From assembly GCA_024734495.1 (NCBI GenBank), contig JALMQS010000085.1:248001-312000 (forward strand): 64,000 nucleotides of DNA, in the 5' to 3' direction. The DNA is from Forficula auricularia. Its lineage: Eukaryota > Arthropoda > Insecta > Dermaptera > Forficulidae. This document shows, one piece after another, positions 3,191 through 42,420 of the stretch (the first letter of the stretch is position 1; the number at the start of each line of letters is the position of its first letter). Under the pieces are notes generated by a model. The model did no database searches and had not been told where the DNA came from. It worked only from the letters and a program-made list of their open reading frames with translations. Both the position numbers and the translations under genes were made by a program.

Positions 3191-3539
3191 AAGTTTAATG
3201 AAAATAATTTAAATTAAAAATTTAGAATTCATAAATTTAAATTATCGTTTAAAATGGAAAAATGGAATGTATTTTAATTAAAAAAACTATTTTCTCAACT
3301 TAATTATTATTCCTGGCGGATTTAATTTGGTTGCACAGCAGATTTCACTAATTTTAGAACTTGGCCTGTTTTTTCACAGAATGTTTTGCTTGTGATTAAT
3401 ATTACATTTATGGTTTATTATTTATATTAAATAAAAGTATTTATTTATTACTATTTAAATTCAAAATTTCATTTTTTGAATCTGATTATATTTTTTTTTA
3501 GTATGCCTCTTTATGTAGTTGGCTCTACTGTCTTTTAAG

Positions 3540-3745
3540 CGTTATGGGAGGGGGTGGGGGGGGGGCAACAGTGTTAACTTATACGACAAATCTCGGCTAT
3601 AGCGTCATTCAAGTTTTTCCATTTGGATTCCTCATATAAACTTGCATTCGAATCTATTTCTATTCTTATAAAAGTCTCATTCTCTTTTTGATCATATTTT
3701 CTGAATATTTAATAAGGTTAGTAGTAGTTTTTTTTTAATATTTTA
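3540..3745 (+). promoter_or_regulatory. Promoter-like duplicate of the F-box gene 5' region
   Basis: This segment resembles 4560-4750: a GGCAACAGTGTTAACTT or equivalent block, then CATTTGGATT, then TATAAAAGTCTC (TATA-like, 3667-3678), and a potential donor AAG/GTTAGTAG near 3720. It straddles the outer edge of the left palindrome arm (about 3697). From 3745 to 4550 only AT-rich sequence is visible. Promoter function is inferred from TATA plus donor spacing. Confidence 0.4.
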
Positions 3746-4687
3746 TTGTTGTTACTAATTTCTTTTGAAATTAATACTCTCGCAACTTTAATCTAGATTT
3801 ATTTTTTATTTTTATTCTTTTTTATTATCAAATGCACGTAAGTTTTTGAAAATTTCACTTAATGAGTCCTTTTTTTCAACTTCTTCCTTTTTAAGATTTA
3901 TATTCTATTCAATTTAAAAATTGTTGTGAAAAAATAATTTTTTTTCAATCTTTGTAATTTTTATTTATTTGTTTTTTATTTAATTGAAAATTGTTTTTCA
4001 ACAACTCTATAAAAAAATAAAGATTTATTTAAATAAATACTTCTTTATAAATCACAATCATAAAACGTGTATTAAATATTCAAACGTTATTGGAGAACAA
4101 GATGTTATAGTTCTATCCAACTTAGGCTGTGTCGATCCAAATTTAGGAATAAAAAATTCTTAACATGCATTTTTTTTTCAAATTTTTATTCTTTAATTAT
4201 TCAATTTTTTAATAATTTAAAATAAATAATTCTACCAATTTCTGCTACAATCTCTAACATTTTCATTAGAATTAAATTAAATTATTTGAAATTACAGAAT
4301 TTATATTTTAAAGGAAAAAATCTTCATTTTGAAAAATATCAGCTTAGGTTGTTTTGTTTTAATTTTAAAAGATTTTCAGTTCCGTATTTTTTTGGGTAAA
4401 AAATTCCAATGTAGTTTTCGATTTTTCTAGTTTTTGGTCTAGTCAAACATTCATCATTTCTCTTGGATTTAATTTTGTAATAATAGTATTTTTTTAAAGT
4501 ATAATATTTAAAATTTTGAAATTACCGCTATTTTTTCAAAGATTACGAGTTTAACTAGTTGGCACTACTGTTTATTAAGAGGGTGTGTTTGGTAACACTG
4601 TTTACATATAGTACAGGTCATTCTTGCTGATGGGCTAGTCCTACATACTATACCATTTGGATTTTGAGTCGAGTTTCTTTATTTTCT

Positions 4688-4695
4688 TATAAAAG
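4688..4695 (+). promoter_or_regulatory. TATA box candidate for F-box gene
   Basis: TATAAAAG lies about 40 bases before a potential exon-1 donor (GAG/GTTAGT at 4737/4738). A noncoding exon follows at 4968-5059, bounded by TTTCAG and GTAAGT and containing no ATG. The same TATA and donor pair is duplicated at 3667-3720. Confidence 0.45.
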
Positions 4696-4967
4696 TCTCT
4701 TACGATTTTTGATTATATTTGCTGTCTATTTCAGGAGGTTAGTAGTTCGAATCCCGAATAAATCATTTTTTAATTTCTACCTATTTTCCAATCAACTTAA
4801 TATTCCTGCCACTTTTGACTAGATTTATTTTACAAACTATTACAATTATATTTTTTCCTACACATTATTCTTGATGTTTCAAACAAACATTGAATCTATG
4901 TTTTGCCATCTCTGAGCTAAATCACCATTTGTACATGCTTAATTATATCTAATAATTCTTATTTCAG

Positions 4968-5059
4968 GTTTTGGACTGTTTGCTAATAGAATTCTTTCAG
5001 CCTATCAGCTCAAGCAACCATCCCAGAGAAGCATTTGTCGTCATCCCTGATTTTGAACA
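4968..5059 (+). other. Noncoding 5' UTR exon of F-box gene, inferred
   Basis: The exon is bounded by acceptor ATTTCAG (ending 4967) and donor GTAAGT (from 5060). It has no ATG, so it would feed into the coding exon whose acceptor is at 5597-5598. The right palindrome arm keeps a mirror copy near 23940-24030. A similar AGAGCATTTGTC...AAGTAAGT segment at about 9120-9158 may be an older paralogous exon. Confidence 0.45.
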
Positions 5060-5254
5060 GTAAGTTAATTTATTTATTTATTTAAATTTAAATGTATTTA
5101 CATACCTATATATTACATTATACTACATCATTACAATTACGTTCTTCTAACTTAACTTCAACATTTTTCTATTAACACAAATCAATATGTTTTCTTAATT
5201 TTATTTCAAATAATGTTAAATTAGTTGAATTTTTTACATCAGAGGGCAAAGAAT

Positions 5255-5432
5255 TGAATTCCTCATTCCCTCTAAAATACACTTGAAAGCTTGTTCTAGG
5301 TCAACAAACAATAGCGTAGTTTAGTTTCCCCCTTGATATAAATATACTTTTATTTGAAACTTTTTCAATATAATGCACTGTTTGTGAATTATAAGACTGT
5401 CTCAAGATAAAAAAAACTCAACCCGATATACA
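5255..5432 (-). mobile_element. End of CCGGGT-type TIR element, remnant (left arm)
   Basis: Ends with GACTGTCTCAAGATAAAAAA and CAACCCGATAT, matching the right ends of the elements at 34.37-35.41 and 52.51-53.62 kb. Only one terminus is present. The mirror copy in the right arm is at about 23555-23735. Confidence 0.6.
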
Positions 5433-5609
5433 CAAAAAATCAGAACTTTCCTGATAAAAACACAATTTGACTGGACTAGAATTAGAAGTTAAAAACCTAT
5501 CTTTATAGAAACCTATATCATATAGACAGCGTTGAGAACACCTCATAATTTTATTATATATTTATTTATTATTTTAATCTTTTTTTTTTTTTTTACAGAT
5601 TTTGTTGCA

Positions 5610-6101
5610 ATGGAAGCGTCAATTTGCGGACTCCCAATTGAAGACGTTCTTTACCCAAAGATCTTCGAGCATTTGGACGTGTTTGATCTGTTGAGTTTAG
5701 CAGGGACAAATCAACAAATGCACGTTACTGTGAATCATTACTTTTCTTTAAAAGATTTCCAAATAATTGATTTCTCTAAGGACAATAATCGCCCTCTTAC
5801 TCAAGAACAATTTACAATTTTGATTGAAAATTGTAAACATGTTTGTATATTAAATCTTACTGGTTGCCAGTGGATTACAGACTCACACTTACGACCTTTA
5901 CTTGAACAAAATACTCAACACTTGATAAAGGTAATACTAAGAAATTGTAGTCGTATTACAATAAATACTGTCCAAATTTTGCAACGATGTAAAAATATCA
6001 TGCTATTCGATTTAACAAATTGCAACGTGATACACTCGGCTTATATTCCATTACTTAGAATAATGTGTTCCAACATGTGTCGAGAGTTTAACGACTTGTG
6101 A
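5610..6101 (+). CDS. Small F-box / leucine-rich-repeat protein
   Basis: A 163-residue protein begins at ATG 5610, 11 bases after a strong splice acceptor (15-T tract then ACAG at 5595-5598). Residues about 6-50 (LPIEDVLYPKIFEHLDVFDL) form an F-box, the motif that binds Skp1 in SCF ubiquitin ligases. Residues about 75-150 hold two or three LRRs of the cysteine-containing FBXL type (LNLTGCQWITD, VILRNCSRIT, LFDLTNCNVI), which normally bind the substrate. The protein is much shorter than usual FBXL proteins, so it may be truncated or use few repeats. Noncoding exons and a TATA box are likely upstream (4688-5059). The mirrored copy in the right arm (22860-23457) is broken, so this is the only intact one. 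Its substrate cannot be told. Confidence 0.8.
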   Translation: MEASICGLPIEDVLYPKIFEHLDVFDLLSLAGTNQQMHVTVNHYFSLKDFQIIDFSKDNNRPLTQEQFTILIENCKHVCILNLTGCQWITDSHLRPLLEQNTQHLIKVILRNCSRITINTVQILQRCKNIMLFDLTNCNVIHSAYIPLLRIMCSNMCREFNDL

Positions 6102-6689
6102 CTTTGTGCACAATTTTCCATTTTTTTATTATTATTTTTTTATAGCAAAAACACATAAACAGGTCTACTCTCTAAGCAAAAATGTTAACTTTTAACATCC
6201 GATTTCAGAGTTTATTCATTTTAACACCTCCTTGCCTAAAATTGCTATTTTTTTTATTATACAAAATATATTTAAATATGTATTTAAAAATGATAGATAG
6301 AAAAAAACAGAATTATCATCAGATGCGGTCAATTGCTATGTGGGTATTTTTCGTGATTTTTCTTTTTTAGCTGTTCTTTTTTTATTAAAAATAGCTGAGA
6401 TACTAGATTGAGATTAACAAATCAAACTATCGCGCGCTATCGAGGTTTGTAAAGCTTTATTACTTTACTTTTTGTACTCAATTTAAGATGTTAAATTTTA
6501 ACGTCTGTTTTTAGAGAATAGACCTGAATAATAGTAAAAATGCATTGATTTATTATTTGTTTTTTAAAACCTGTTATAAATTAATAAAAAAAATATATAA
6601 TTATGTATACCTACGGATCAAGGATGTAAAGAAATTAGTTAGGGAAAAACATTAATGTGAATGTGACTTATATTTATTTTGTTGATTTG

Positions 6690-6729
6690 NNNNNNNNNNN
6701 NNNNNNNNNNNNNNNNNNNNNNNNNNNNN
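6690..6729. other. Assembly gap of 40 N in left arm
   Basis: The run of N falls exactly where the left arm stops matching the right arm and a mariner fragment begins. The join is therefore not proven by sequence. Confidence 1.
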
Positions 6730-7105
6730 ATTTTTTTTATGTTTTCTGGAATAACAGCTTATAATTTGTGCGTCCACTACGCTCTGCATCATTTGTGCTG
6801 GTACGGCCACGTTTAAATTCAGTAATCCACTTCTCTGTTGTCTCGATGGAGTAGCTCGGATAACGTTTATCAACAGCCATTGTTTGGTTTCCACTGTATT
6901 TTTTCGTCGCTTAATGCTTTATTAAAACTCGAAATTCACTTTTTTCCATTTTTTTAAATAACAAAAGTTACTTCACAAAATGCTGTACGCGAATCAATAG
7001 TCAGATTGCTGTCAAATTTATACACGTATTAAATAAAAATCATATGGAAAAAATTCTAGTAACGCAATCTATTTGTCATCCTACGGACTTTATTGAATGA
7101 CCTAA
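6730..7105 (-). mobile_element. mariner transposon fragment, 5' TIR and transposase N terminus
   Basis: On the minus strand the outer end at 7105 reads TTAGGTCATTCAATAAAGTC, a mariner terminal inverted repeat, directly preceded by a TA target dinucleotide (7106-7107). About 200 bases further in, the transposase N-terminal region is recognisable: VETKQWL in one frame, then DKRYP, EKWITEFKRGRTS and DAERSGRT in another, so there is a frameshift. This part is the helix-turn-helix DNA-binding region. The copy runs into the N gap at 6729, so catalytic domain and other TIR are unseen. The right arm has no mariner here. 7110-7690 holds nothing recognisable. Confidence 0.85.
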
Positions 7106-7699
7106 TATTTTATTTCCTGTACACACACTCGGAGAACATAATTGGAATTTTGTTGCCGGCTATAGAACTTTCTGGTCCAAAAATACGAAAATAACATTTT
7201 CAAATTATTTTCATGAAATTTTAAGACGTTGTTATGATATAGGTATGCTTAATTAAGAAATTTCTAAAAAAATTCTAAAAGAAATTAAAAACCCTATTTG
7301 TTTAATTACTCATATTTCAATATATCATTTCAACGTCTTAGAAAACTATGGAAAGAATATCCTCATTTTAGGCGTTCCCAGAAAGTGCTTCCTCTTTGGA
7401 AATTATTATTCTTAATTCAAAAAATTCATGTCAAGCACAAAATTTCATATACCTAATTACAATTTATTAATTTAAAAAATAACTGATTTTGAATCCATTG
7501 TTATGTGGATAATCCGGTAAAGCTGGCCAGCAGATAGGAAATTGTATTTCAAGAATGTTTTTAATCTTAACATATATAGGTATAATTATATAGAAGAAAG
7601 AAAATCTTAAGTTTAATGATTAAATGGTTTGGCTAGCAGCGCTTGATGCAAGGAAAAATGAATAGAATTGAAAATATTAAGTTAAGTTGGATCTAATTT

Positions 7700-7905
7700 T
7701 TAATGAAGTCTCAAGTCAGGTTTCGGTTGAAGGTGAACATTTTTAAATAATAAGTAGGTAAGTAACAATTCAAACTCGGTTTCATAAAAATAAAAAAAAT
7801 ATATGTTTTGAGTTTTATCTCGATACATATATTTCGAATTTACAAACCCATCAACAGGAGTTAACAGAGAAAACTGAAAACACAAAATTAGAAATATGTG
7901 TACAG
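7700..7905. repeat. Foldback-family remnant (left arm), mirror at 20.88-21.02 kb
   Basis: Contains the GGTGAACATTTTTAAATAATA, TATGTTTTGAGTTTTATC and ATATTTCGAATTT segments also found around the palindrome centre (13.97-14.83 kb). It is a degraded copy. The right-arm counterpart is partly lost in the gap at 20843-20883. Confidence 0.5.
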
Positions 7906-8159
7906 GTATGTCAGATTGTTTTCAGGTTTGTTTAAAATTATAAAAAAATTTTACTAATAGAAAGACTATTATTATTCGTGACAATAGTAAGATATATTAT
8001 ATCCATGAAGCTGCCAGCCCCCTTTCGAAAAAAGATTTTGTTTCCAACAAAAAAATAAAAAAAATATTTCCAATAATACTAGTATATGGTATACGTATAT
8101 TATAATTTACAGAATTTACGGATTTTATCTAAAAATCTGAAGTTAAAATATTAAATAGA

Positions 8160-9160
8160 ATCATATATCAATGAGTTTGAATGAAATAACAGGCACTTTA
8201 CTGGCCAGGCCTACTTTATTCTGATTGGCCTCCGGAGATTTGTATACCTACTAGCGAATGCTCAATCCCTCCCTACCTCGTTACTTGAAACGTTTTCTCA
8301 CAGCATACACCGGCTTACTGGCTGAGTACACATGGATGGCTCGAGCAGTCTGATTAGTCCTTTTCGTATTATATTCATTACATGAGCAGCTAAATTTAAT
8401 TCGAATATACCTCGATATATAGGTTCACAGCCTCTACGTTATGTATATAAAGAATATTGAATTAAGTACTTTCAAATTCTCTCTAAAATTGTAACTTTAT
8501 AATATATATATAGATATATATATATTTATAGAATATTATACTATTTTCTAAAAGTGCTTCTGTCTTTAACTTATTCTTAATCACATTTTCTATTTTTATA
8601 ATTGAGCAAAATTTTACTTTATTCAAATCTTCTGTTTTTTAAAAAATATAAAATACTAAATATTAAAGAGTTATTGATTTTGAAAATACAATAATTTAGT
8701 AATAAAAACGTTGTATTTAAAACTATTTTTTAGAAATCACTTGAAGACCAAGTTGACACAAATAATAATTTAAATTTCAAAATTGTTCCCAATTGAACGT
8801 ATAATTCCTGAATATTAAAATTTTTGATAATTCAATTTTATCTGTCATTTTGCTAGAATGTTATATTAAGAAAATCATAGCAGGGTGTGATTCGGTCGAA
8901 ATAATTATACAAATATTGTTTTCTGATATTCAAATAGCGGCGGATCTAAGATGGCGTCAGTGTCGAATTTCGTAAGTACCGACCAGATGGTCATACTGTG
9001 TGTAAGCTTAGATTTATTACTGTATACGGTCTTACCAGAGATATCTTATTAATGTTTTCAACATCATTCTATCTATACCGTTGTATCTCTATATTTGAGT
9101 CTACCAGAATATTTTCCAATTAGCAGAGCATTTGTCCTACCAGATAAATACAAGTAAGTA
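8160..9160. other. Noncoding region of left arm with conserved splice-like sites
   Basis: No ORF of note. It contains TATATAAAG at about 8446 and a mini reading frame ATGGCGTCAGTGTCGAATTT followed by GTAAGT (8951-8977), kept in the right arm (19895-19910 reversed). An exon-like segment ends at a GTAAGT donor near 9152. It could be the upstream part of a duplicated gene, but no coding exon follows. Confidence 0.3.
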
Positions 9161-9467
9161 CTTTAATATTTCCAACAAAATCGTAATTTTTTAATATATA
9201 CCTATAATTATATTACTTTCTAAAGTGCTTTTTTCTCCTTAAATTAATCATAGTCAATTTTTTTGATAATTTTTATTTTGTATTGAAATTTCTAATAGAA
9301 TACATTTATTTTTCATACGAACAAATGAGCCAAATTTTATCATATATTACAAAAGTTGTTATCTAGCCATCATAATTCATAATTTTGACAATTTTAAAGA
9401 AAGATATAGATTTAGAATATAGAAAGATTAAAGATATTATGATTTTTAAATAGATCTGATGTTTTTT

Positions 9468-11823
9468 ACTTTATCAATGCAAAGCATGGGTAGAAAGTAT
9501 TGTAATCGCTCTCGGGGCAAGCGTGAAGCTAGGGGTCCTCAGGTAAAGACTACGGAACCCATGGATTCAATTAAAGTCACAAATTGCTGCGTGTCCATAT
9601 AGATTGAATTTTAACGTGACGGTTTTGTCAAAAATTACATGGGGTCTCGTCGAGAGGCCAAAAGGGCGATTTTTTCATTTAGTGCGTGCGTATGGATGGA
9701 TGTATGGATGGATGTATGTATGTATATTATCGCTTTTTGGCTTACGATTTTTCACACCGTTGCACCGATTGAAATGAAAGTGAAAACCTACGCAGTTTTA
9801 ACAAAATGAAGCGCTGATTGGTTTGGTACATATCGGCAAACATTAGTACTTAGTTTTTATTTTTTTCTAAATATTTTGAAAATGACTTAACCAATTTTGA
9901 TGAAATTTAATATCCTAATTAAGTACCTTGGGGACCACAAAAAGGTTAAATAAAGTTTTAGTAAAAATTATATTTTTTAAAGTACTTTACTCTAAAATGC
10001 CAGATAGTACTTTTTAAAAAAATTTTAAATTTATTCATTTGATCGTTTTAATATAGCTCATTTAACCTAACTTAAGTAAGAATGGATAGGCTTCTCTCTG
10101 TGAAATGCTAAAAATTTGGGAGGAATTTTTATGAGTAACCATAGCAACTGCGTTGTTTTCTTATCCGTTACCTTTGCTGAAGACATAGAGAAATCGATTT
10201 TAAACCAAAAATGGCGATTGATTCTCATCTAGTTCTTGAGGAATAATCATTCTATATTGGATTTTTGACGTTTCGGTTTTTATTAGTAACCATTGCTGAA
10301 GACAGAGAAATCGATTTTAAACCAAAAATAGCGATTGATTCTCATCTAGTACTTGAGGAATAATCATTCTATATTGGATTTTTGACGTTTCGGTTTTTAT
10401 TAGTAACCATTGCTGAGGACATAGAGAAATCGACTTTAAACCAAAAATAGCGATTGATTCTCATCTAGTACTTGAGGAATAATCATTCTATATTGGATTT
10501 TTGACGTTTCGGTTTTTATTAGTAACCATTGCTGAAGACATAGAGAAATCGACTTTAAACCAAAAATAGCGATTGATTCTCATCTAGTACTTGAGGAATA
10601 ATCATTCTATATTGGATTTTTGACGTTTCGGTTTTTATTAGTAACCATTGTTGAAGACATAGAGAAATCGACTTTAAACCAAAAATAGCGATTGATTCTC
10701 ATCTAGTACTTGAGGAATAATCATTCTATATTGGATTTTTGACGTTTCGGTTTTTATTAGTAACCATTGCTGAAGACATAGAGATATCGACTTTAAACCA
10801 AAAATAGCGATTGATTCTCATCTAGTACTTGAGGAATAATCATTCTATATTGGATTTTTGACGTTTCGGTTTTTATTAGTAACCATTGCTGAAGACATAG
10901 AGAAATCGACTTTAAACCAAAAATAGCGATTGATTCTCATCTAGTACTTGAGGAATAATCATTCTATATTGGATTTTTGACGTTTCGGTTTTTATTAGTA
11001 ACCATTGCTGAAGACATGGAGGAATCGACTTAAAATAAAAAATAGCGATTGATTCTCATCTAATACTTGAGAAATAACCATTCTATATTGGATTTTTCAC
11101 GTTTCGGTTTTTATTAGTAACCATTCCTGAAGACATAGAGAAATCAACTTTAAACCAAAAATAGCGATTGATTCTCATCTAGTACTTGAGGAATAATCAT
11201 TCTATATTGGATTTTTGACGTTTCGGTTTTTATTGGTAACCATTGCTGAAGACATAGAGGAATCGACTTAAAATCAAAAATAGCGATTGATTCTCATCTA
11301 ATACTTGAGGAATAACAATTCTACATTAGGTTTTTGACGTTTCGATTATTATTAGTAACCATTGCTGAAGACATGGAGGAAACGACTTAAAATCAAAAAT
11401 AACGATCGATTCTTATCTAATACTAGAGGAATAACCTTATTGAATTCCATTTTGATGTTTTGACTATTAATGGAAAACCTCTACTGAAAATGTAGAAGAA
11501 TCGACTTAAAATCAAAAAGACTAAATTCTTTTATGGCAAACAACTCAAGATTGTTATTCCTCAAGTATTAGATGAGAATCGATGGCTATTTTTGATTTTA
11601 AGTCGATTCCTCTATGTCTTCAGCAATGGTTACTAATAAAAACCGAAACGTCAAAAATCCAATGTAGAATGGTTATTCCTCGACTCTTAAATGAGAATTA
11701 TTTTTGAATTAATTTCAATATGAACTACAAATTGCAAGTGATATCTGATTAATAATAAAGGAACAAACATATTAATATTTCAAATGAATTTGATAAAGTT
11801 TAGCAACTATCCGTTGCAGTTTA
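9468..11823 (+). mobile_element. Helentron-like non-autonomous element with 119-bp array (left arm copy)
   Basis: The start ACTTTATC...ATGCAAAGCAT is a near-palindromic end. Then come a body of about 600 bp with a short CATC/ATGT microsatellite, a tandem array of 119-bp monomers, a TTGGATAAAG-type subterminal inverted repeat and a terminal hairpin GCAACGATCCGTTGC (here with one change) ending GCAGTTTA. Opposed subterminal repeats (CTTTATCCAA), a terminal hairpin, an internal minisatellite and lack of coding match known Helentron-associated interspersed elements such as DINE-1. That class assignment is inference. Other copies: 17022-19385 (-), 40534-42419 (-), 50980-51652 (+, no array). No protein is encoded. 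Confidence 0.7.
10150..11535 (+). repeat. 119-bp tandem array (left arm)
   Basis: The motif GACGTTTCGG recurs at 10267, 10384, 10503, 10622, 10741, 10860, 10979, 11098 (as CACG), 11217 and 11336, a spacing of 119 bp except the first, which lacks 2 bases. Later monomers diverge. At about 11540 the array switches orientation, and one to two monomers read on the opposite strand up to 11700. Confidence 0.95.
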
Positions 11824-12060
11824 TTTTTCCATTATCATTAAATTATTAGGTAATTCCTCGTCGATGTATACAAACTATATATATGTTATATTTTCTTATA
11901 TTGATTTACAATAACATATTAGTTTTTTTTAATTAGAGATTTTATAATTTTGAAAATCGTAAAATTATATATATTTTATTATAGGAGCATATGGTAATCT
12001 GAATTTGATTTCTACATTGGCGGATCAAAAATAAAGGGCAGATGAGGTAGGCAGGCAATA

Positions 12061-12665
12061 CTTTTCTAACCATATGCTCAGTCCCTATCTTCCTGGCCTC
12101 AACCGAGTTTTCTTTTATAAGTCAACAGTGTTGCCAACTCATAAAACGAATAAAATACGGCGCCCAATATTAATAGTACGCAATAAATAATCTATTATTA
12201 TAAATAATAACAATAAACCAATGTAATATATTTTTATATAATTTATTTTTTAATCTAACTTTAATCATAGTTTAATTGAACTAATTAATTATCTAATTAA
12301 TTTTTTATAAATTGCCGATTTACATTTTGAAATTTTACAGAACAAATTGAAAATGTTCTCAAGTTTGAGTTATTAATAAAATGAATTTAATTTTTGATTT
12401 TAAGTCGATTCTCCATGTTTAAATGAGTACAATGAAGAATACTTGAAATTGCCAAAATCAATATAGAATGTTATTCTCGATTGTTAAGAATGATCACATT
12501 TTTAATGAAGCTAACAGAATTGCAAAATTGCAATGATATATTCGACAATATTAAAGGAATAAATATATGACATTGTTTAGCCTGAGGTTAGCACGATCCG
12601 TTGTGTTTATTTTTTATTATTTTTGCGTCTCTATAATAAAATTTTTGTCCTCACCTCATGAATTT
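12061..12665 (+). repeat. Left-arm copy of 2933-3190 repeat plus a badly diverged Helentron-like end
   Basis: 12061-12300 matches 2933-3190 and, inverted, 16540-16800. From about 12140 to 12660 this arm is peppered with deletions relative to both other copies, while flanking parts of the arm match well. A Helentron-like terminus is still traceable (GATCCGTTGTGTTTATT near 12595). Confidence 0.55.
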
Positions 12666-12667
12666 TT

Positions 12668-13022
12668 GTCCAATTTCCACCAAAATATAATCAGCTCTTA
12701 ATCTCAATGTCCCAAATTTAGGTTTTAAAATTCTTTTTGTTTTTCGCACTAGTTTTTGAGCTAGAGCCTACACAAAATTTGGTAACGAACTCACTTATAG
12801 ACATTTTGACAAAATAATTAATATCTCGTAAAATATAATTTTTATGCTGTTCACTTATTAGGACTTTTTTATAGATTAAAACGCCATGGTTTTGGTCAAT
12901 TTTTTTTATCAAAATATTTTAAGCCGTTTTTAAGATATTTCTAAAAAACCAATAAACAAAAACAAAATACATTTTAAATACACGATTATAATACTTGACC
13001 AAACCCTATATATAGTAATGTA
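12668..13022 (-). repeat. Dispersed repeat ending GGGTTTGGTCAAGTATTATA
   Basis: The segment carries, on the minus strand, GGTTTGGTCAAGTATTATAAT, CCATGGCGTTTTAATCTATA, TTTTGTCAAAATGTCTATAA and AAGAGCTGATTATA. Other copies are at about 15772-16130 (mirror), 37960-38240 and 61622-61975. It codes for nothing and its ends are not clear. Confidence 0.6.
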
Positions 13023-13033
13023 TATATATTGAC

Positions 13034-13388
13034 CGCCTCCGTGGTGTAATGGTCAGAGTAACTGACTGGCAACCCGGAGGTCTCGGGTTCGATTGCCGGC
13101 TATACCCAGACATTTTTTCTCTAAGTATAGGGTCTGGTAATAAAAATTAAGTGGGAGATAAATTTAACCGAATTTATCGCGCGGAGAATTTACCACTGCT
13201 CGAAGCCCCTAAAAACCTTAGTAAATTGGATATTGAATTGTATCAAAGTTTCTGAGATTGGCTCGTGATCCCGGCTTCTTTTCCTTCTACTCTGTTCTTT
13301 TCACTATGGAGGGGCCAGCCCATACAGACCTTTAGGGGATCCACCTTCTAGTGAATCTCCTTCTCACATCAATATCATTAAAAAAAAA
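13034..13388 (+). mobile_element. tRNA-derived SINE (left arm copy)
   Basis: The head has RNA polymerase III boxes: A box around TGGTGTAATGGTCAG (13042-13056) and B box GGGTTCGATTG (13086-13096). The cloverleaf acceptor ends do not pair, so it is not a working tRNA gene. A body of about 250 bp follows and ends in an A run (13380-13388). The 3' part (CCTTTAGGGGATCC, GAATCTCCTTCTC) is related, reversed, to the repeats at 28.69 and 43.99 kb. The mirror copy is at 15402-15747. Confidence 0.8.
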
Positions 13389-13393
13389 TGCGG

Positions 13394-13552
13394 GGGGTAA
13401 ACCGCGATTTGAATTAGGTCTACACTTCTTTGGAATTATATGGATATATTTTGAAATTAATTAAATAATGAACCTTTGTCTATTTTCTTCTACTTGGAAA
13501 TGAAAGTGGAACTGGAAGAATGTGTACACGATATTAGGTCGCGGTTCACCCC
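13394..13552. mobile_element. Small MITE with GGGGTGAACCGCGA ends (left arm)
   Basis: The terminal inverted repeat is GGGGTAAACCGCGA on the left and the reverse complement of GGGGTGAACCGCGA on the right, 159 bp in total. It has no coding capacity. Copies: 15239-15398 (mirror) and 44245-44382. Confidence 0.75.
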
Positions 13553-13965
13553 TCGTGGTTTGGTAAATTTGGCTATTTGGTAAAAGTGCTTCTGTCTCTT
13601 TAACTTATTTTTAATCATATTTTTGATGATTTCTATTTTTATAATTGAGTAAAAATTTTACTTTATTCAAATCTTCTGTTTTTAAAAATATAAAAAATAC
13701 TAAATATTAAAAATAGTTGTTAATTTTGAAAATACAATCATTTAGTGATAAAAACGTATTTAAATATTTTTTTTAGAAATCCACTGAGACCAACATTGAC
13801 ACAAATATCTCAATTTAAATTTCAAAATTGTTCCCAATTGCACGTATAATTCTTGAATATTAAAATTTTTGATAATTCAATTTTATCTGTCATTTTGTTA
13901 GAATGTTATATTAAGAAAATCATAGCATGGTGTGATTCGGTCTAAATAATTATAAAAATATTAAT

Positions 13966-14825: not shown

Positions 14826-15238
14826 AATATTTTTATAATTATTTAGACCGAATCACACCATGCTATGATTTTCTTAATATAACATTCTAACAAATGACAG
14901 ATAAAATTGAATTATCAAAAATTCTTAATATTCAGGAATTATACGTGCAATTGGGAACAATTTTGAAATTTAAATTGAGATATTTGTGTCAATGTTGGTC
15001 TCAGTGGATTTCTAAAAAATAGTTTTAAATACGTTTTTATCACTAAATGATTGTATTTTCAAAATTAAATAACTCTTTTTTTAATATTTAGTATTTTATA
15101 TTTTTTAAAAAACAGAAGATTTGAATAAAGTAAAATTTTTACTCAATTATAAAAATAGAAATCATCAAAAATATGATTAAAAATAAGTTAAAGAGACAGA
15201 AGCACTTTTACCAAATAGCCAAATTTACCAAACCACGA

Positions 15239-15398
15239 GGGGTGAACCGCGACCTAATATCGTGTACACATTCTTCCAGTTCCACTTTCATTTCCAAGTA
15301 GAAGAAAATAGACAAAGGTTCATTATTTAATTAATTTCAAAAATATATCCATATAATTTCAAAGAAGTGTAGACCTAATTCAAATCGCGGTTTACCCC
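15239..15398. mobile_element. GGGGTGAACC MITE (right arm)
   Basis: Mirror copy of 13394-13552 with the terminal repeats GGGGTGAACCGCGA and TCGCGGTTTACCCC. Confidence 0.75.
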
Positions 15399-15401
15399 GC
15401 A

Positions 15402-15747
15402 TTTTTAATGATATTGATGTGAAAGGAGATTCACTAGAAGGTGGATCCCCTAAAGGTCTGTATGGGCTGGCCCCTCCATAGTGAAAAGAACGAGTAGAAG
15501 GAAAAAGAAGCCGGGATCTGAGCTAATCTAAAACTTTGATACAATTCAATATCCAATTTACTAAGGTTTAAAGGGCTTCGAGCAGTGGTAAATTCTCTGC
15601 ACGATAAATTCAGTTAAAAATTTATCTCCACTTAATTTAGAATTATAGACCCTACTCACAGAAAAATGTCTGGGTATAGCCGGCAATCGAACCCGAGACC
15701 TCCCTGCGGTTGCCAGTCAGTTACTCTGACCATTACACCACGGAGGC
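15402..15747 (-). mobile_element. tRNA-derived SINE (right arm copy)
   Basis: Mirror of 13034-13388. A and B boxes are still visible on the minus strand. The T-run at 15402-15406 is the remnant of its poly(A) tail. Confidence 0.8.
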
Positions 15748-16169
15748 GTCAATATATGTATTACTATATAGGGTTTGGTCAGTATTATAATCGTGTATTT
15801 AAAATGTATTTTGTTTTGTTTTATTGGTTTTAGAAATCTCTTAAAAACGGCTTTAAAATATTTTGATAAAAAAATTGACCAAAACCATGGCGTTTTAATC
15901 TATAAAAAAGTCTAATAAAGTGTTCAACATAAAATACATTTTACGAGATATTAATTATTTTGTCAAAATGTCTATAAATTGAAGTTCGTTACCAAATTTT
16001 GGCTGCCAGGCTCTAGCTCAAAAAAACTAGTGCGAAAAACAAAAAGAATTTTAAAAGCTAAATTTGGGACATTGAGATTAAGAGCTGATTATATTTTGGT
16101 GGAAATTGGACAAAAAATTATGGGGGTGGGGGTTAAAAAATTTTAATTATGAGATTTTCAAAATAATAA

Positions 16170-16470
16170 AAAATAAACTGCAACGGATCGTTGCTAAACT
16201 TTATCCAAATTCATTTGAAATATTAATATGTTTATTCCTTTAATATTAATCAGATATATCATTTGCAATTTGCAGTTCATGTTGACTTTAATTCAAAAAT
16301 AATGATCGATTCTCATTTAACAGTCGAGGAATAACAATTCTATATTGGATTTTTGACGTTTCGGTAATTATTGGTAACCATTTCTGAAGACATGGAGGAA
16401 TCGACTTAAAATCAAAAAGACTAAATTCATTTTTGGTAAACAACTCAAGCTTGAGAACGTTTTTTCAGTT
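16170..16470 (-). repeat. Helentron-like terminal fragment
   Basis: Starts AAATAAACTGCAACGGATCG, includes AACTTTATCCAAATTC and one 119-bp-type monomer, and ends at CTCAAGCTTGAG. A short B-end-only copy. Its left-arm partner is heavily eroded. Confidence 0.7.
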
Positions 16471-17021
16471 TGGATATAGCGAGACAAAATATTAAATCGG
16501 CTAGCGTTGTAAAAAAGTTAATTAAGTTAAGTTAATTTAGTTCATTAACTCTAACAGTTAAAGTTAGATTAAAAAATAAAATTATATAAAAAATTAATAT
16601 TACATTTACGGTTTGTTGTTTATTATTTATAATAAATAAGATTATTTATTTATTACTATTAATATTGGAATTTTCATATTTTTAATCCATCGTTTTATGA
16701 GTTGGCAACACTGTTGACTTATAAAAGAAAACTCGGTTGAGGCCAGGAAGATAGGGACTGAGCATATGGTTAGAAAAGTATTGCCTGCCTACCTCATCGC
16801 TGACTCACAGTCCGCCATCATGAGGAAATCAAAAAATTCAGATTACCATATGCTCCTATAATAAAATATATATAATTTTACCTTCGATTTTCAAAATTAT
16901 AAAATCTCTAATTAAAAAAACTAATATGTTATTATGTAAATCAATATAGAGAAAATATAACATATATATGGTTTGTATACATCGACGAGGAATTACCTAA
17001 TAATTTAATGATAATGGAAAA

Positions 17022-19385
17022 TAAACTGCAACGGATAGTTGCTAAACTTTATCCAAATTCATTTGAAATATTAATATGTTTGTTCCTTTATTATTAATCA
17101 GATATCACTTGCAATTTGTAGTTCATATTGAAATTAATTCAAAAATAATTCTCATTTAAGAGTCGAGGAATAACCATTCTACATTGGATTTTTGACGTTT
17201 CGGTTTTTATTGGTAACCATTGCTGAAGACATAGAGGAATCGACTTAAAATCAAAAATAGCCATCGATTCTCATCTAATACTTGAGGAATAACAATCTTG
17301 AGTTGTTTGCCATAAAAGAATTTAGTCTTTTTGATTTTAAGTCGATTCTTCTACATTTTCAGTAGAGGTTTCCATTAATAGTCAAAACATCAAAAATGGA
17401 ATTCAATAAGGTTATTCCTCTAGTATTAGATAAGAATCGATCGTTATTTTTGATTTTAAGTCGTTTCCTCCATGTCTTCAGCAATGGTTACCAATAATAA
17501 TCGAAACGTCAAAAACCTAATGTAGAATTGTTATTCCTCAAGTATTAGATGAGAATCAATCGCTATTTTTGATTTTAAGTCGATTCCTCTATGTCTTCAG
17601 CAATGGTTACCAATAAAAACCGAAACGTCAAAAATCCAATATAGAATGATTATTCCTCAAGTACTAGATGAGAATCAATCGCTATTTTTGGTTTAAAGTT
17701 GATTTCTCTATGTCTTCAGGAATGGTTACTAATAAAAACCGAAACGTGAAAAATCCAATATAGAATGGATATTTCTCAAGTATTAGATGAGAATCAATCG
17801 CTATTTTTTATTTTAAGTCGATTCCTCCATGTCTTCAGCAATGGTTACTAATAAAAACCGAAACGTCAAAAATCCAATATAGAATGATTATTCCTCAAGT
17901 ACTAGATGAGAATCAATCGCTATTTTTGGTTTAAAGTCGATTTCTCTATGTCTTCAGCAATGGTTACTAATAAAAACCGAAACGTCAAAAATCCAATATA
18001 GAATGATTATTCCTCAAGTACTAGATGAGAATCAATCGCTATTTTTGGTTTAAAGTCGATATCTCTATGTCTTCAGCAATGGTTACTAATAAAAACCGAA
18101 ACGTCAAAAATCCAATATAGAATGATTATTCCTCAAGTACTAGATGAGAATCAATCGCTATTTTTGGTTTAAAGTCGATTTCTCTATGTCTTCAACAATG
18201 GTTACTAATAAAAACCGAAACGTCAAAAATCCAATATAGAATGATTATTCCTCAAGTACTAGATGAGAATCAATCGCTATTTTTGGTTTAAAGTCGATTT
18301 CTCTATGTCTTCAGCAATGGTTACTAATAAAAACCGAAACGTCAAAAATCCAATATAGAATGATTATTCCTCAAGTACTAGATGAGAATCAATCGCTATT
18401 TTTGGTTTAAAGTCGATTTCTCTATGTCCTCAGCAATGGTTACTAATAAAAACCGAAACGTCAAAAATCCAATATAGAATGATTATTCCTCAAGTACTAG
18501 ATGAGAATCAATCGCTATTTTTGGTTTAAAATCGATTTCTCTGTCTTCAGCAATGGTTACTAATAAAAACCGAAACGTCAAAAATCCAATATAGAATGAT
18601 TATTCCTCAAGAACTAGATGAGAATCAATCGCCATTTTTGGTTTAAAATCGATTTCTCTATGTCTTCAGCAAAGGTAACGGATAAGAAAACAACGCAGTT
18701 GCTATGGTTACTCATAAAAATTCCTCCCAAATTTTTAGCATTTCACAGAGAGAAGCCTATCCATTCTTACTTAAGTTAGGTTAAATGAGCTATATTAAAA
18801 CGATCAAATGAATAAATTTAAAATTTTTTTTAAAAGTACTATCTTACTTTAGAGTAAAGTACTTTAAAATATAATTTTACTAAAAACTTTATTTAACCTT
18901 TTTTGTGGTCCCCAAGGTACTTAATTAGGATATTAAATTTCATCAAAATTGGTTAAGTCATTTTCAAAATATTTAGAAAAAAATAAAAAACTAAGTACTA
19001 ATGTTTGTTTGCCGATATGTACCAAAAACTAATCAGCGCTTCATTTTGTTAAACTAATGGTAGGTTTTCAATTTCATTTCAATCGGTGCAACGGTGTGGA
19101 AAAAATCAAATAAAAAAGCGATAACATACATACATACATCCATCCATACATCCATCCATACGCACGCACTAAATGAAAAAATCGCCCTTTTTGGCTCCTC
19201 GACGAGACCCCATGTAATTTTTGACAAAACCGTCACGTGTTAAAATTCAATCTATATGAATACTACAATTTGTGACTTTAATTAAATCCATGGGTTCCGT
19301 AGTCTTTACCTTGAGGACCCCTTTGAAGCCACGCTTGCCCCGAGAGTGATTACAATACTTTACCCATGCTTTGCATTGATAAAGT
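17022..19385 (-). mobile_element. Helentron-like element with 119-bp array (right arm copy)
   Basis: Mirror of 9468-11823. The 3'-type end TAAACTGC lies at 17022, the array at about 17150-18690, and the near-palindromic 5' end at 19378-19385. Monomer variants occur in the reverse of the left-arm order (for example GAGATATCG at 10781 with 18058, and TTGAAG at 10651 with 18192). The array was therefore copied as a block. Confidence 0.75.
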
Positions 19386-20842
19386 AAAAACATCAGATCT
19401 TATTTAAAAATCTATAATATCTTTAATCTTTCTATATTCTAAATCTATATCTTTCTTTAAAATTGTCAAAATTATGAATTATGATGGCTAGATAACAACT
19501 TTTGTAATATATGAGATAAAATTTGGCTCATTTGTTCGTATGAAAAATAAATGTATTCTATTAGAATTTACTATAAAAATAAAAATTATCAAAAAATTGA
19601 CTATGATTAATTTAAGGAGAAAAAAGCACTTTAGAAAGTAATATAATTATAGGTATATATTAAAAAATTACGATTTTGTTGGAAATATTAAAGTACTTAC
19701 TTGTATTTATCTGGTATATAATAAACGTGCTCTGCTAACTGGAAAATATTCTGGTAGACTCAAATATAGAGATACAACGGTATAGATAGAATGATGTTGA
19801 AAACATTAATAAGATATTCCTGGTAAGACCGTATACAGTAATAAATCTAAGCTTACACACAGTATGACCATCTTGGGGTCGGTACTTACGAAATTCGACA
19901 CTGACGCCATCTAGATCCCAAAGCGCGCTATTTGAATATGAAAACAATATTTGTATAATTATTTCGACCGAATCACACCAAGGCGATTTTCTTAATATAA
20001 CATTTCTAGTAAAATGACAGATAAAATTGAATTATCAAAAAATTTTAATATTCAGGAATTATACGTTCAATTGGGAACAATTTTGAAATTTAAATTGGAG
20101 ATATTTGTGTCAACTTGGTCTCAGTGGATTTCTAAAAAATAGTTTTAAATACAACGTTTTTATTACTAAATTATTGTATTTTCAAAATCAATAACTCTTT
20201 TTAATATTTAGTATTTTATATTTTTTAAAAAACAGAAGATTTGAATAAAGTAAAATTTTTACTCAATTATAAAAATAGAAAATGTGATTAAGAATAAGTT
20301 AAAGAGACAGGAAGCACTTTTAGAAAAATAGTATATTATATTCTATAAATATATATATCTATATATATATTATAAAGTTACAATTTTAGAGAGAATTTGA
20401 AAGTACTTAATTCAATATTCTTTATATACATAACGGTGAGGCTGTGAACCTATATATCGAGGTATATTCGAATTAAATTTAGCTGCTCATGTAATGAATA
20501 TAACATGAAAAACGACCAGACTGCTCGAGCCATCCATGTGTACTCAGCCAGTAAGCCGGTGTATGCTGTGAGAAACGTTTCAAGTAACGAGGTAGGGAGG
20601 ATTGAGCATTCGCTAGTAGGTATACAAATCTCCGGAGGCCAATCAGAATAAAGTAGCCTGGCCAGTAAAGTGCCTGTTATTTCATTCAAACTCATTGATA
20701 TATGATTCTATTTAATATTTTAACTTCAGATTTTTAGATAAAATCCGTAAATTTAAATGTATAATATACGTATACCATATACTAGTATTATTGAAATATT
20801 TTTTATTTTTTGTTGGAAACAAAATCTTTTTTTCCAAAGGGG

Positions 20843-20883
20843 NNNNNNNNNNNNNNNNNNNNNNNNNNNNNNNNNNNNNNNNN
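20843..20883. other. Assembly gap of 41 N in right arm
   Basis: The gap interrupts the foldback-family remnant at 20.8-21.0 kb. Sequence on both sides still matches the left arm near 7830-8050. Confidence 1.
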
Positions 20884-21589
20884 TATATGTATCGAGATAA
20901 AACTCAAAACATATATTTTTTTTATTTTTTAATTTCTGTGAAATGTTACTTACCTACTTATTATTTAAAAATGTTCACCTTCAACTGAAACCTGACTTGA
21001 GATCATTAAAAATTAGATCCAACTTAACTTAATATTTTCAATTCTATTCATTTTTCCCTGTACTAAGCGCTGCTAGCCAAGCCACTTAATCATTGAACTT
21101 AAGATTTTCTTTCTCTTTTATATAATTATACCTATATATGTTAAGATTAAAAACATTCTTGAAATACAATTTCCTATCTGCTGGCCAGCTTTACCGGATT
21201 ATCCTCATAACAATGGATTCAAAATCAGTTATTCTTTAAATTAATAAATTGTAATTAGGTATATGAAATTTTGTGCTTGACATGAATTTTTTGAATTAAG
21301 AATAATAATTTCCAAAGAGGGAAGCACTTTCTGGGAACGCCTAAAATTAGGCAACTGTAATATTGAAGCCTTACAGATAGAATGCTTGCTTCAGGCTTGG
21401 AATAAATCAATTTTTATGTTTTTTCTGAAGGTGTTATTTATAAAGAAAATCGACAATTCTGAAACACTAGCACAAGAAAAAATATTTTCAAATTGATGTT
21501 ATTTATCTCGAAAAAAACATCCTGTAGAGAATAACTGCGAAGAAATTTATTCCAGTATTTGAATCATTTGATTTATTAATATTTATTTA

Positions 21590-21870: not shown

Positions 21871-22859
21871 AATAGATGGGGCGTCGCGAACCTTCAGTAA
21901 AAAATAAAAGAAAAAATAAAGTTTAAAAATATATTTTTATTAAGAAAATGTTAATTAAAAGACATTTGTAGGTTAACACAAATCAACAAAATAAATATAA
22001 GTCACATTCACATTAATGTATTTCTCTAACTAATTTCTTACATCCTGGATCCGTATACATAATTATATATTTTTTATGAATTTATAACAGGATTTTAAAA
22101 ACAAATAAAAAATCAATGCATTTTTATCTATTAATCAGGTCTATTCTCTAAAAACAGACGTTAAAATTTAACATCTTGTTAAAAAGTAAATTAATAAAGT
22201 TTTTACAAACCTCGATAGCGCGTGATAGTTTGATTTGTTAATCTCAATCTAGTATGTCAGCTATTTTTAAAAAAAAAAGAACAGCTAAAAAAAAGAAAAA
22301 TCGCAAAAATACCCACATAGCCATTGACCGCATCTGATGATAATTCTGTTTTTTTTCAATCTATCATTTTTAAATATTTAAATTTATTTTGCATAATATA
22401 AAAACTTTTATTTAAGTATGTTATAGGTATATTTTATCCAAACAAATATATTTTTTAAACCATAAATAAAATAAAAATAATATATATATCTATACCTATA
22501 TATATAATAAAAGTTTATTAATCATTGTGGTATTAATATTTCTTTAATAGATATAATGGATCTGAAATGTATTGCTTTTAACACAAAGCTGTCAAAACAT
22601 AACCTTACTTTTTACCTTTTTGTTAAAGTCGCCAAGTTCTTTCATTAAATATGGCGTTAAAAAAATTTTAAATGCGCACCCTCTGACTTGGCTTTATTTT
22701 TAACACTTTTAGCTAAATATTTACGATTTGAAGATAGAGTTTTTTCTTACAAAATAGCAATTTTAGGCAAGGAGGTATTAAAATGAATAAACTCTGAAAT
22801 CGGATGTTAAGTTTGCTTAGAGAGTAGACCTGTTTATGTGTTTTGCTCTAAAAAAATAT

Positions 22860-23457
22860 GGAAAATTGTGCACAAAGTCACCGTCGTTTAAACTCTCGAC
22901 ACATGTTGGAACACGATATTCTAAATGTCAATGGAATATAAGCCGAGTGTATCACGTTGCAATTTGTTAAATCGAATAGCATGATATTTTTACATCGTTG
23001 CAAAATTTGGACAGTATTTATTGTAATACGACTACAATTTCTTAGTATTACCTTTATCAAGTGTTGAGTATTTTGTTCAAGTAAAGGTCGTAAGTGTGAG
23101 TCTGTAATCCACTGGCAACGGTAAGATTTAATATACAAACATGTTTACAATTTTCAATCAAAATTATGTAAATTGTTCTTAATTAAGAGAGAGGCGATTA
23201 TTGTCCTTAGAGAAATCAATTATTTAGAAATCTTTTAAAGAAAAGTAATGATTCACAGTAACGTGCATTTGTTGATTTGTCCCTGCTAAACTCAACAGAT
23301 CAAACACGTCCAAATGCTCGAAAATCTTTGGGTAAAGAACGTCTTCAATTGGGAGTCCGCAAATTGACGCTTCCATTGCAACAAAATCTGTAAAAAAAAA
23401 AAAAAAAAAGATTAAAATAATAAATAAATATATAATAAAATTATGAGGTGTTCTCAA
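22860..23457 (-). pseudogene. Broken mirror copy of the F-box/LRR gene
   Basis: This is the inverted duplicate of the gene at 5610-6101. The F-box part is intact from the ATG (MEASICGLPIEDVLYP...), but at the codon after LKDF a CAA has become TAA. Several indels follow between about 23105 and 23210, and another near the C terminus (around 22915-22925). LRR segments WITDSHLRPLLEQ and NCSRIT remain readable in a second frame. The splice acceptor tract and a noncoding upstream exon (about 23940-24030) are also mirrored. Whether every indel is real or some are consensus errors cannot be told; the C-to-T stop is a clean substitution. Confidence 0.85.
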
Positions 23458-23554
23458 CGCTGTCTATATGATATAGGTTTCTATAAAGATAGGTTTTTAA
23501 CTTCTAATTCCTAATTCAGTCAAATTGTGTTTTTTTATCAGAAGGATTCTGATT

Positions 23555-23735
23555 TTTTGTGTATATCAGGTTGAGTTTTTTTTTGTCTTGAGACAGTCTT
23601 ATAATTCACAAACGGTGCATTATATTGAAAAAGTTTCAAAATAAAAATATATTTATATCAAAAGGGAAACTAAACTACGCTATTGTTTGTTGACCTATGA
23701 AACAAACTTTCAAGTGTATTTTAGAGGGAATGAGG
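23555..23735 (+). mobile_element. CCGGGT-type TIR end, right arm mirror
   Basis: Counterpart of 5255-5432, with CTTGAGACAGTCTTATAATT and the following TIR sequence. Confidence 0.6.
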
Positions 23736-25689
23736 AATTCAATTCTTTGCCCTCTGATGTAAAAAAATTCAACTAATTTAACATTATTTAAAATAAAATT
23801 AAGAAAACATATTGATTTGTGTTAATAGAAAAATGGAAAGTTAAGTTAGAAGAACGTAATTGTAATGATGTAGTATAATGTAATATATATGTATGTAAAT
23901 ACATTTAAATTTAAATAAATAAATAAATTGACTTACTGTTCAAAATCAGGGATGACGACAAAATGCTTCTATAAGGATGGTTGGCGAGCTGATGAGCTGA
24001 AAGAATTCTATTAGCAAACAGTCCAAAACTAAAATAAAGATTATTAGATATAATTTAGCATGTACAAATTGGTGATTTAAATAGATATAGCCAAAACATA
24101 GATTCAATGTTTGTTTTGAAACATCTTGAATAATGTGTAGGAAAAATATAATTGTAATAGTTTGTAAAATAAATCTAGTCAAAAGTGGCAAGAATATTAG
24201 GTGAGTTGGAAAATAGGTAGAAATTAAAAAATGATTTATTCGGGATTCGAACTACTTACTCTAGAAATAGACAGCAAATATAATCAAAAATCGTAAAGAC
24301 TTTTATAAGAAAATAAAGAAACTCGACTCAAAAACCAAATTAGTATAGTATGTGGGATGGCCATTAGCAAGAATGACCTGTACTATATGTAAACGAGTGT
24401 TACCAAACACACCCTCTTAATAAACAGTAGTGCCAACTAGATAAAGCCGTAATCTTTGAAAAAATAACACGTTAGATTCAAAATTTTAAATATTATACTT
24501 TAAAAAAATACTATTATTACAAATTAAATCCAAGAGAAATGATGAATGTTTGACTAGACCAAAACTAGAAAAATCGAAAACTACATTGGAATTTTTTACC
24601 CAAAAAAATAGGGAACTGAAAATCTTTTAAAATTAAAACAAAACAACCTAAGCTGATATTTTTCAAAATAAAGATTTTTCCTTTAAAATATAAATTCTGT
24701 AATTTCAAATAATTTTAATTTAATTCTAGTAGAAAATGTTAGAGATTGTAGCAGAAAATTGGTAGAATTATTTATTTTAAATTGTTAAAAAATTAAATAT
24801 TTAAAGAATAATAATTTGAAAAAAAATTTGGTGTAAATTTGGATCGAAATAGCCTAAGTTGGATAGAACTATAACATCTTGTTCTCCAATAACATTTGAA
24901 TATTTAATACACGTTTTATGATTGTGATTTATAAAGAAGTATTTATTTAAATAAATTCTTTATTTTTATAGAGTTGTGAAAAAACAATTTTCAATTAAAT
25001 AAAAAAAAAAATAAATAAAAATTACAAAGATTGAATAAAAAAATTGTTTTTTCACAACAATTTTTAAATTGAATAGAATATAAATCTTAAAAAGGAAGAA
25101 GTTGAACAAAAAAGGACTCATTAAGTGAAATTTTCAAAAACTTACGTTCATTTGATAATAAAAAAGAATAAAAATAAAAAATAAATGTAGATAAAAGTTG
25201 CGAGAGTATTAATTTCAAAGGAAATTTGTAACAAGAATAAAATATTAAAAAAACTACTACTAACCTTATTAAATATTCAGAAAATTGTTCTCTAAGGCCT
25301 TGAAGAACTATTGTGATTAAACGTTAGAATTATTAACAAACATTTTATTATTGTTTTTATAAAGAACCTTATTTATTTAATAGAATAAAAAATAAATAAG
25401 AATTTATTTAAAAATATCTTTTGCATAACCAGCTCTTAATTTTCAGAAAAAATAACACATTTTGATAGGTTTTGTTATTAACAATTGGATGAATAAAAAT
25501 GAATCATGTGGTTGAATCAAAACAGGTGCAGGAGATGGGGTATTCGGGGGTGAGGTCTTGGAGGGGGGGGGGCGAATACTATATATATTTGTATTTTTAA
25601 TTTGAAAACGGCTCTCAAATAAAAATCGACGTTTTTATCAGAATTTTAAATTAAAAATAATATTAAAATAAAGCTTTTAACTGAAGGAA

Positions 25690-40190: not shown

Positions 40191-40199
40191 TTTGACCTA

Positions 40200-40530: not shown

Positions 40531-40533
40531 AAT

Positions 40534-42419: not shown

Positions 42420-42420
42420 A

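What the first reader, a model, noticed from the sequence alone, without database searches (positions are those of the whole stretch)
3697..25284. 21.6-kb giant palindrome with mirror order preserved to single satellite monomers
Arms of about 10.5 and 10.7 kb are inverted around a 325-bp loop. Mirror identity extends to individual variant 119-bp monomers: a 2-base-short monomer near 10290 with 18541, TTGAAG at 10651 with 18192, GAGATATCG at 10781 with 18058, CACG at 11098 with 17747. The array was thus duplicated as a block, with no unequal exchange since. Gene-carrying palindromes of this size are unusual on insect autosomes; on sex chromosomes they are maintained by gene conversion, but here the arms clearly diverge.
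Basis: partly seen in the sequence, partly recalled or inferred. Interest (0 to 1): 0.85.

Follow-up and report, generated by a model that had tools for sequence, protein, structure and literature searches.

The report
Fold-back palindrome inside a transposon
A stretch of insect DNA was copied in reverse next to itself, with the turn lying inside a mobile element; the inner 14 kb looks real, the outer left 3 kb may be an assembly misplacement, and a repeat block in the arms was copied from one arm to the other long after the duplication.

Summary
The mirror arms are in the sequence as given (3696-14231, 14557-25285, 325-bp loop), and the 119-bp satellite is mirrored monomer by monomer. Two inferences fail. 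(1) The array was not simply "duplicated as a block": 10016-11875 has 3 substitutions in 1,858 sites, against 5.1% in most of the arms, so one arm was probably copied onto the other later (ectopic gene conversion; assembler collapse could explain part). (2) Only 6730-20842 is gap-free. The outer left arm (3696-6689), which holds the F-box gene, joins across a 40-N gap, on a contig nearly identical (sampled pieces 99.5-100%) to scaffold C209; both copies start at the same base after 100 N: probably a misplaced haplotig, or a recent segmental duplication. The safe palindrome is the core 7361-21351. Its centre lies inside a dispersed foldback-like transposon. Relatives, including one at the same site of the same F-box unit (C35), run on unturned where the window turns, at an 8-bp TATTAATA present at both loop edges: the signature of fold-back inverted duplication. 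So the centre is not a head-to-head join of alleles. New member of a known kind.

The parts
7361..14231 (+). Core left arm, in the same gap-free stretch as the loop
   Evidence: Arm alignment: 359 substitutions in 6,616 sites (5.4%), with the satellite tract, the 12041-12700 dip and 7831-8019 (no partner) included
14557..21351 (-). Core right arm (41-N gap 20843-20883 inside; C35 has about 206 bp there)
14232..14556 (.). Loop: single-copy spacer, native internal sequence of transposon TE1
14224..14231 (.). Turned junction: 8-bp self-complementary TATTAATA, also at 14557-14564
   Evidence: 39 of 116 matches start exactly at 14224; alignment with C631, C663, C35; chance of at least 8 bp 5e-4
14224..14828 (+). 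TE1 right arm, dispersed foldback-like transposon
13960..14231 (-). Left copy of the outer part of the TE1 arm (1 substitution in 268 sites against R, 8 gap columns)
13573..13962 (+). Partial second copy of F-box unit segment 8541-8917, next to TE1
10158..11518 (+). 119-bp satellite array, left arm
17328..18688 (-). 119-bp satellite array, right arm, mirror copy
10016..11875 (+). Low-divergence tract (partner 16971-18830): 3 substitutions in 1,858 sites
3696..6689 (+). Outer left arm: F-box/LRR unit at the end of the contig that duplicates C209; attached across N gap 6690-6729
21979..25285 (-). Outer right arm, homologous F-box/LRR unit; homology ends at 25285
5610..6098 (+). F-box/LRR (FBXL2-like) reading frame, 163 aa from Met to stop, outer left arm
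   Evidence: FBXL2 chain 6o60_C, E 3e-13; no Pfam hit at E 0.01 for the surrounding ORF
22881..23463 (-). Disrupted right-arm copy of the same frame (two stop changes, frameshifting indels)
6730..7360 (.). Left-arm-only segment next to the gap, no match in R or in other loci fetched by then

Best explanation
A segment of an F-box/LRR gene cluster that carried a foldback-like transposon (TE1) suffered a break or stalled fork inside TE1. The free end folded back, paired at two inverted TATTAATA octamers 325 nt apart and copied the neighbouring DNA in reverse, giving a palindrome whose loop is unduplicated TE1 sequence. The arms then diverged by about 5%. Later, gene conversion between arms rewrote the satellite array with about 0.5 kb of flank (and probably the stretch beside the loop), so that its monomers mirror each other almost perfectly. 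The outermost left 3 kb is probably not part of the duplication but a second assembled copy of the C209 locus, placed here because it ends in the same gene unit. Shown: arm homology, TE1 nature and native sequence of the centre, octamers, the low-divergence tract, the C209 duplicate. Inferred: fold-back order of events, gene conversion as agent, misplacement of the left contig.
For: Loop plus inner right arm is a dispersed element: 39 of 116 listed matches start exactly at window 14224, and besides the window only C631 is covered across the junction, at 89% and with the native sequence there (40 of 1,698 candidates scored). C35 has TE1 at the same unit position with the same right flank, and is the closest listed copy (97%), with the native left side. 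8-bp inverted microhomology: chance 5e-4. In human fold-back duplications all 21 sequenced junctions have an unduplicated spacer and 13 have 2-8 bp inverted microhomology (PMC3907307, passages read). Tract statistics. The C209 duplicate begins at the same base after 100 N in both scaffolds.
Against: TATTAATA is self-complementary, so a deletion between direct copies inside a palindromic TE1 would leave the same junction; one such copy with the octamers in place exists (C560). The 325-bp loop is shorter than the 766-bp minimum in the human set, and 5 of those 21 junctions have insertions instead of microhomology. TE1 parts of the arms differ by only 1 in 268 sites while the arms differ by 5%, which needs another conversion. 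Third copies side with L in some segments and R in others, so 5% is not a clean age. No reads: part of the satellite identity could be assembler collapse, and a real segmental duplication is not excluded. The dedicated junction search did not complete.
Confidence: 0.6

Rival explanations
1. The palindrome started at the centre of an already palindromic TE1 copy (its long inverted arms extruded or recombined between sister chromatids). The unstable centre was later trimmed by a deletion between two direct TATTAATA copies, leaving the 325-bp loop.
For: Two TE1 copies are nearly palindromic (1.1 kb at 92.6%, 1.6 kb at 96.4%); the second, C560, has TATTAATA at the needed places in both arms, the first only in its right arm.
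Against: C35, which shares the insertion site, carries the native non-palindromic left side, though with a deletion of its own; needs two events.
Confidence: 0.25
2. One reading: one block duplication preserved the array order, without later exchange.
For: Monomer order, length variants and point variants mirror each other.
Against: 3 in 1,858 substitutions inside the tract against 5.1% outside, with sharp borders at 10015 and 11876. A block inherited from the duplication should be as diverged as its flanks.
Confidence: 0.05
3. The arms' identical satellite is an assembly product: the two arrays were collapsed in the graph and written out twice.
For: 1,061-bp exact run; a gap with a wrong size (41 N where C35 has about 206 bp); retained duplicate sequence in this assembly (C209/C760, and C365/C73 99.9% over 1 kb).
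Against: Seven differences lie at 11077-11824, where collapse would give none and 5% would give about 40.
Confidence: 0.25
4. Two alleles joined head to head by the assembler.
For: The left contig is a near-duplicate of C209.
Against: No gap at the centre; turned junction at 8 bp inside a transposon; the left flank (60 kb) and the sequence right of 25285 (to 124000) share only scattered repeats, no collinear continuation, among the 60 longest matches of 600 bp or more (this uses the doubtful left contig); no second copy of the centre above 97%.
Confidence: 0.05
5. The left contig is correctly placed and C209 is a real, very recent segmental duplication of about 51 kb, so the palindrome is the full 21.6 kb.
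For: Unit order on both sides of the 40-N gap agrees with C35; short gaps may rest on read pairs (inference).
Against: Shared block starts at the same base after a gap in both scaffolds; C209 runs gap-free past the unit into other sequence, while C760's copy ends at a gap.
Confidence: 0.3

Closest known systems
Fold-back inverted duplications with disomic spacer (human; PMC3907307, passages read)
   Same: Unduplicated spacer between inverted copies; short inverted microhomology at the spacer edge; 3 of 21 human junctions lie in LINE/SINE repeats
   Different: Spacer 325 bp against 766-70,466 bp; arms 7-10 kb, interstitial and about 5% diverged; centre in a foldback-like transposon
Palindromic gene pairs of Drosophila, Hsp70 and Amy (PMC3924832, passages read)
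   Same: Mirror-oriented insect duplicates with ectopic gene conversion
   Different: Here the converted part is a satellite, the F-box copies are not homogenised, and one copy is broken
Y-chromosome palindromes (PMC3723533, title and abstract start in a search listing only)
   Same: Large inverted arms, conversion tracts of kilobase scale
   Different: Arms 95%, not above 99.9%; sex linkage untested
Foldback (FB) transposons (recalled, not tested against a library)
   Same: TE1 copies have inverted arms of very different length; two of those fetched are nearly palindromic
   Different: No further copy of the turned centre was found, so the 21.6-kb palindrome itself does not look like a repeated mobile unit

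Membership tests
Fold-back inverted duplication | Unduplicated spacer between the inverted arms | tested here: met
   325-bp loop, no second copy in the window at E 1e-2
Fold-back inverted duplication | Inverted microhomology of 2-8 bp at the spacer edge, judged on an unrearranged relative | tested here: met
   TATTAATA at both edges in C663, C631 and C35
Fold-back inverted duplication | Terminal deletion or dicentric history | not testable with these tools
   No cytogenetics or reads
Ectopic gene-conversion tract | Identity tract longer than chance between diverged paralogues | tested here: met
Ectopic gene-conversion tract | Shared polymorphism between paralogues | not testable with these tools
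   One assembly only
Conversion-maintained sex-chromosome palindrome | Arm identity above 99% overall | tested here: not met
   About 95% outside the tract
Conversion-maintained sex-chromosome palindrome | Sex linkage | not testable with these tools
   No sex-specific data
Mobile giant foldback element | Further copies of the whole palindrome | tested here: inconclusive
   No other place has the turned centre among the 40 scored of 1,698 candidates; the search with the arms' interior did not complete
Assembler join of alleles | Arms continue as allelic, collinear sequence beyond both edges | tested here: not met
   Only scattered repeats shared between the flanks, with the doubtful left contig as one flank
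F-box/LRR protein family (gene in the outer arms) | Sequence match to FBXL proteins | tested here: met
   FBXL2 chain E 3e-13; Pfam scan of the ORF gave 0 families at E 0.01

The most novel reading that the evidence does not exclude
TE1 is a recurrent palindrome seed: its inverted arms of varying length provoke fold-back duplications of neighbouring genes, spreading mirror copies of the F-box unit. The embedded 119-bp satellite acts as an initiator of arm-to-arm conversion, so a tandem array, not a gene, is what the palindrome homogenises.
Probability: 0.12. Interest if true: 0.6.

Novelty: new member of a known kind. Interest (0 to 1): 0.35.

Why it matters
It is a readable case of how a palindrome starts: the turned junction can be set beside an unturned relative with the same transposon at the same site. 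It also warns that perfect mirror order in a satellite is not a clock for the duplication, and that scaffold-level palindromes in repeat-rich insect genomes can be lengthened by misplaced haplotigs.

Tried and rejected
Rejected: the centre as a head-to-head join of alleles. Rejected: array identity as a relic of the first duplication. Considered: whole palindrome as mobile element; no second turned centre among scored candidates. Protein searches of the 191-aa F-box frame and the 477-aa frame at 38766-40196 gave no hit at E 0.001; the 477-aa frame gave no PDB hit up to E 0.1. A 20-base satellite pattern found nothing in viral contigs. No Rfam match at gathering score and no tRNA by ARAGORN in the window. 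Of the paper searches I saw listings only, save passages of PMC3907307 and PMC3924832; in the listing (15 of 21 papers) no title or abstract start pointed to this locus. The organism was not identified.

Unanswered: the genome-search machine was busy for most requests, so three planned controls are missing: the 91-base junction query, window 6730-7360, and window 11880-12680. A fourth, on the 244-bp identical repeat, was planned but not sent.
Full report
What is there. The window is C760:248001-312000 of a 1.06-Gb, 845-contig assembly. Self-comparison gives inverted arms 3696-14231 and 14557-25285 with a 325-bp loop. Substitution divergence is 4.8% at 3697-6640, 4.4% at 7361-7824, 5.5% at 8021-10015, 0.16% at 10016-11875, 7.5% at 11876-12040, 21% at 12041-12700, 8.9% at 12701-13447 and 1.4% at 13448-14231. 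Homology is interrupted: L 6730-7360 finds no partner, R has 349 bp more at about 22405-22750, and N gaps lie at 6690-6729 and 20843-20883.

The satellite. Arrays of 10.6 copies of 119 bp sit at 10170-11434 and 17412-18676. Landmark variants occur once per array, at mirror positions. The tract 10016-11875 holds 3 substitutions and 4 single-base indels, with sharp borders. Against the 5.07% background (353 of 6,957 sites, leaving out 12041-12700) the binomial P is 1.6e-37. A block of duplication age would carry about 94 substitutions. One arm was therefore copied onto the other later, or the assembler wrote one array twice. The seven differences lie at 11077-11824, where 5% would give about 40, so collapse can explain at most the 1,061-bp exact run. 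The satellite is not particular to this locus: a 231-bp query gave 130 matches (40 of 624 candidates scored, so a lower bound); of the full-length ones only the two arms match at 100%, the next at 98%.

The centre. A query of 14000-14790 gave 116 matches (40 of 1,698 candidates scored). Of these, 39 start exactly at query base 225, which is window 14224, and run on into the right arm; besides the window only C631 (89%) is covered from 13 to 791. Loop plus inner right arm (14224-14828) is thus a transposon, here called TE1, and the left arm begins where TE1 continues differently elsewhere. In C663, C631 and C35 the sequence left of the loop is CTCATTCGGCCTC-TATTAATA; in the window it is GGTTATTG-TATTAATA, the reverse complement of the right side. 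TATTAATA stands at both loop edges; 8 or more matching bases at random turned junctions in this window occur with frequency 5e-4. C631 covers the centre because it has terminal inverted repeats of about 170 bp, not the turned junction. Two other copies are nearly palindromic, 1.1 kb at 92.6% and 1.6 kb at 96.4%, while the copy at C663:9676688 has a single arm: TE1 is foldback-like.

The unturned relative. C35 (127-kb contig) carries the F-box unit in the order 5275-6251, 6249-6689, 7361-8461, 8460-8917, TE1, 8906-9180, 3282-5281. TE1 sits at the unit position seen at the window's centre, shares its right flank and is the closest listed TE1 copy (97%). On its other side the unit goes on, where the window turns back. 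C845 shows 7630-9180 followed directly by 3281-5281, so the unit occurs in tandem. The F-box segment has 57 listed matches (40 of 479 candidates scored).

The outer left arm. C209 matches C760 from -5921 to 6453 (window coordinates) at 98.8%. Per 500 bp the difference is 0-1.0%, except 2% and 4% at 0-1000 and 7% after 6000; summed to 6000 it is about 0.5%. Pieces further left are 100% and 99.65%, collinear, and one at about -56 kb is not; four probes to the right of C209's unit find no collinear match in C760 up to window coordinate 124000. The block starts at the same base after 100 N in both scaffolds, at 99.87% over 5.5 kb. About 21 of the 51 kb were compared. C209 shows no gap in the fetched 2193501-2217100, which runs through the unit; the C760 copy ends at 6689. 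After about 6160 that copy follows a C137-like unit (2.3% from C137 at 6250-6680). Another pair, C365 and C73, is 99.9% identical over the 1 kb compared. I read the left contig as a duplicate haplotig, with a real segmental duplication as rival. If it is misplaced, the palindrome as such carries no identified gene.

Mosaic relations. Up to 6100, C209 (0-0.2%) and C845 (0-1.8%) lie near L, while third copies are 1.4-7.4% from R; C35 is an exception at 3700-4700 (5.7% and 4.7% from L). At 8910-9175 C35 and C845 lie near R (1.8%) and away from L (6.1%); at 13035-13385 C845 lies near L (3.7%) and away from R (12.9%). This is exchange among copies or assembler mixing; the 5% is no clean age.

The gene. 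5610-6098 is an F-box/LRR frame matching FBXL2 (E 3e-13), though it has no Pfam hit. The right copy has two stop changes and frameshifting indels; of 10 differing codons without gaps 8 are non-synonymous, the stops included. The mirror arms do not keep two intact copies.

Mechanism and standing. Fold-back duplication fits best: unduplicated spacer, inverted microhomology, a known unturned relative. Human cases have spacers of 766-70,466 bp, and 13 of 21 junctions have 2-8 bp microhomology (PMC3907307, passages). The alternative, trimming of a palindromic TE1 centre, predicts the same junction and is rated 0.25. Mirror gene pairs with conversion are known in Drosophila (PMC3924832, passages). 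Hence: a known kind, with unusually readable origins and a caution on assembly.

Noticed in passing
window 2936-3179 and 16534-16777: 244 bp outside the palindrome are 100% identical, inverted, to the right arm, while the left arm copy (12062-12284) is 85%; C209 has it at 100% too. Recent insertion, conversion or collapse.
   Followed up: partly
G000 C209:2154520-2205600 and C760 left of window 6160: About 51 kb present twice, the sampled pieces 99.5-100% identical, both copies starting right after a 100-N gap.
   Followed up: yes
C365:1640001-1641000 and C73:959136-960135: Another pair at 99.9% on different scaffolds, suggesting retained haplotigs.
   Followed up: partly
C845:85424015, C137:23990744, C35:30219: These copies of the F-box unit share an insertion at unit position 5275 (about 2.5 kb in C845) that both arms and C209 lack.
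   Followed up: partly
window 20843-20883: The 41-N gap stands for about 206 bp in C35: this gap size is not reliable.
   Followed up: partly
window 6730-7050: Reverse-strand frame recalls a mariner transposase start (recalled; no tool match); contig edge lies in it.
   Followed up: no
window 825-1589 (-), 54709-55206 (+), 61053-61304 and 63425-63688 (-): Retrotransposon endonuclease, hAT dimerisation domain and cytochrome P450 exons.
   Followed up: no
window 38766-40196 (-): 477-codon open frame, leucine-rich by eye, without Pfam, PDB or protein-collection match at the thresholds used.
   Followed up: partly
window 40513-42420 and 50979-51534: Further copies of the satellite-bearing element, the first cut by the 100-N gap.
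   Followed up: no
C760 window coordinates -9510..-8731 and 108659-109436: A 784-bp inverted repeat pair at 97.3%, among scattered repeats shared by the two flanks.
   Followed up: no
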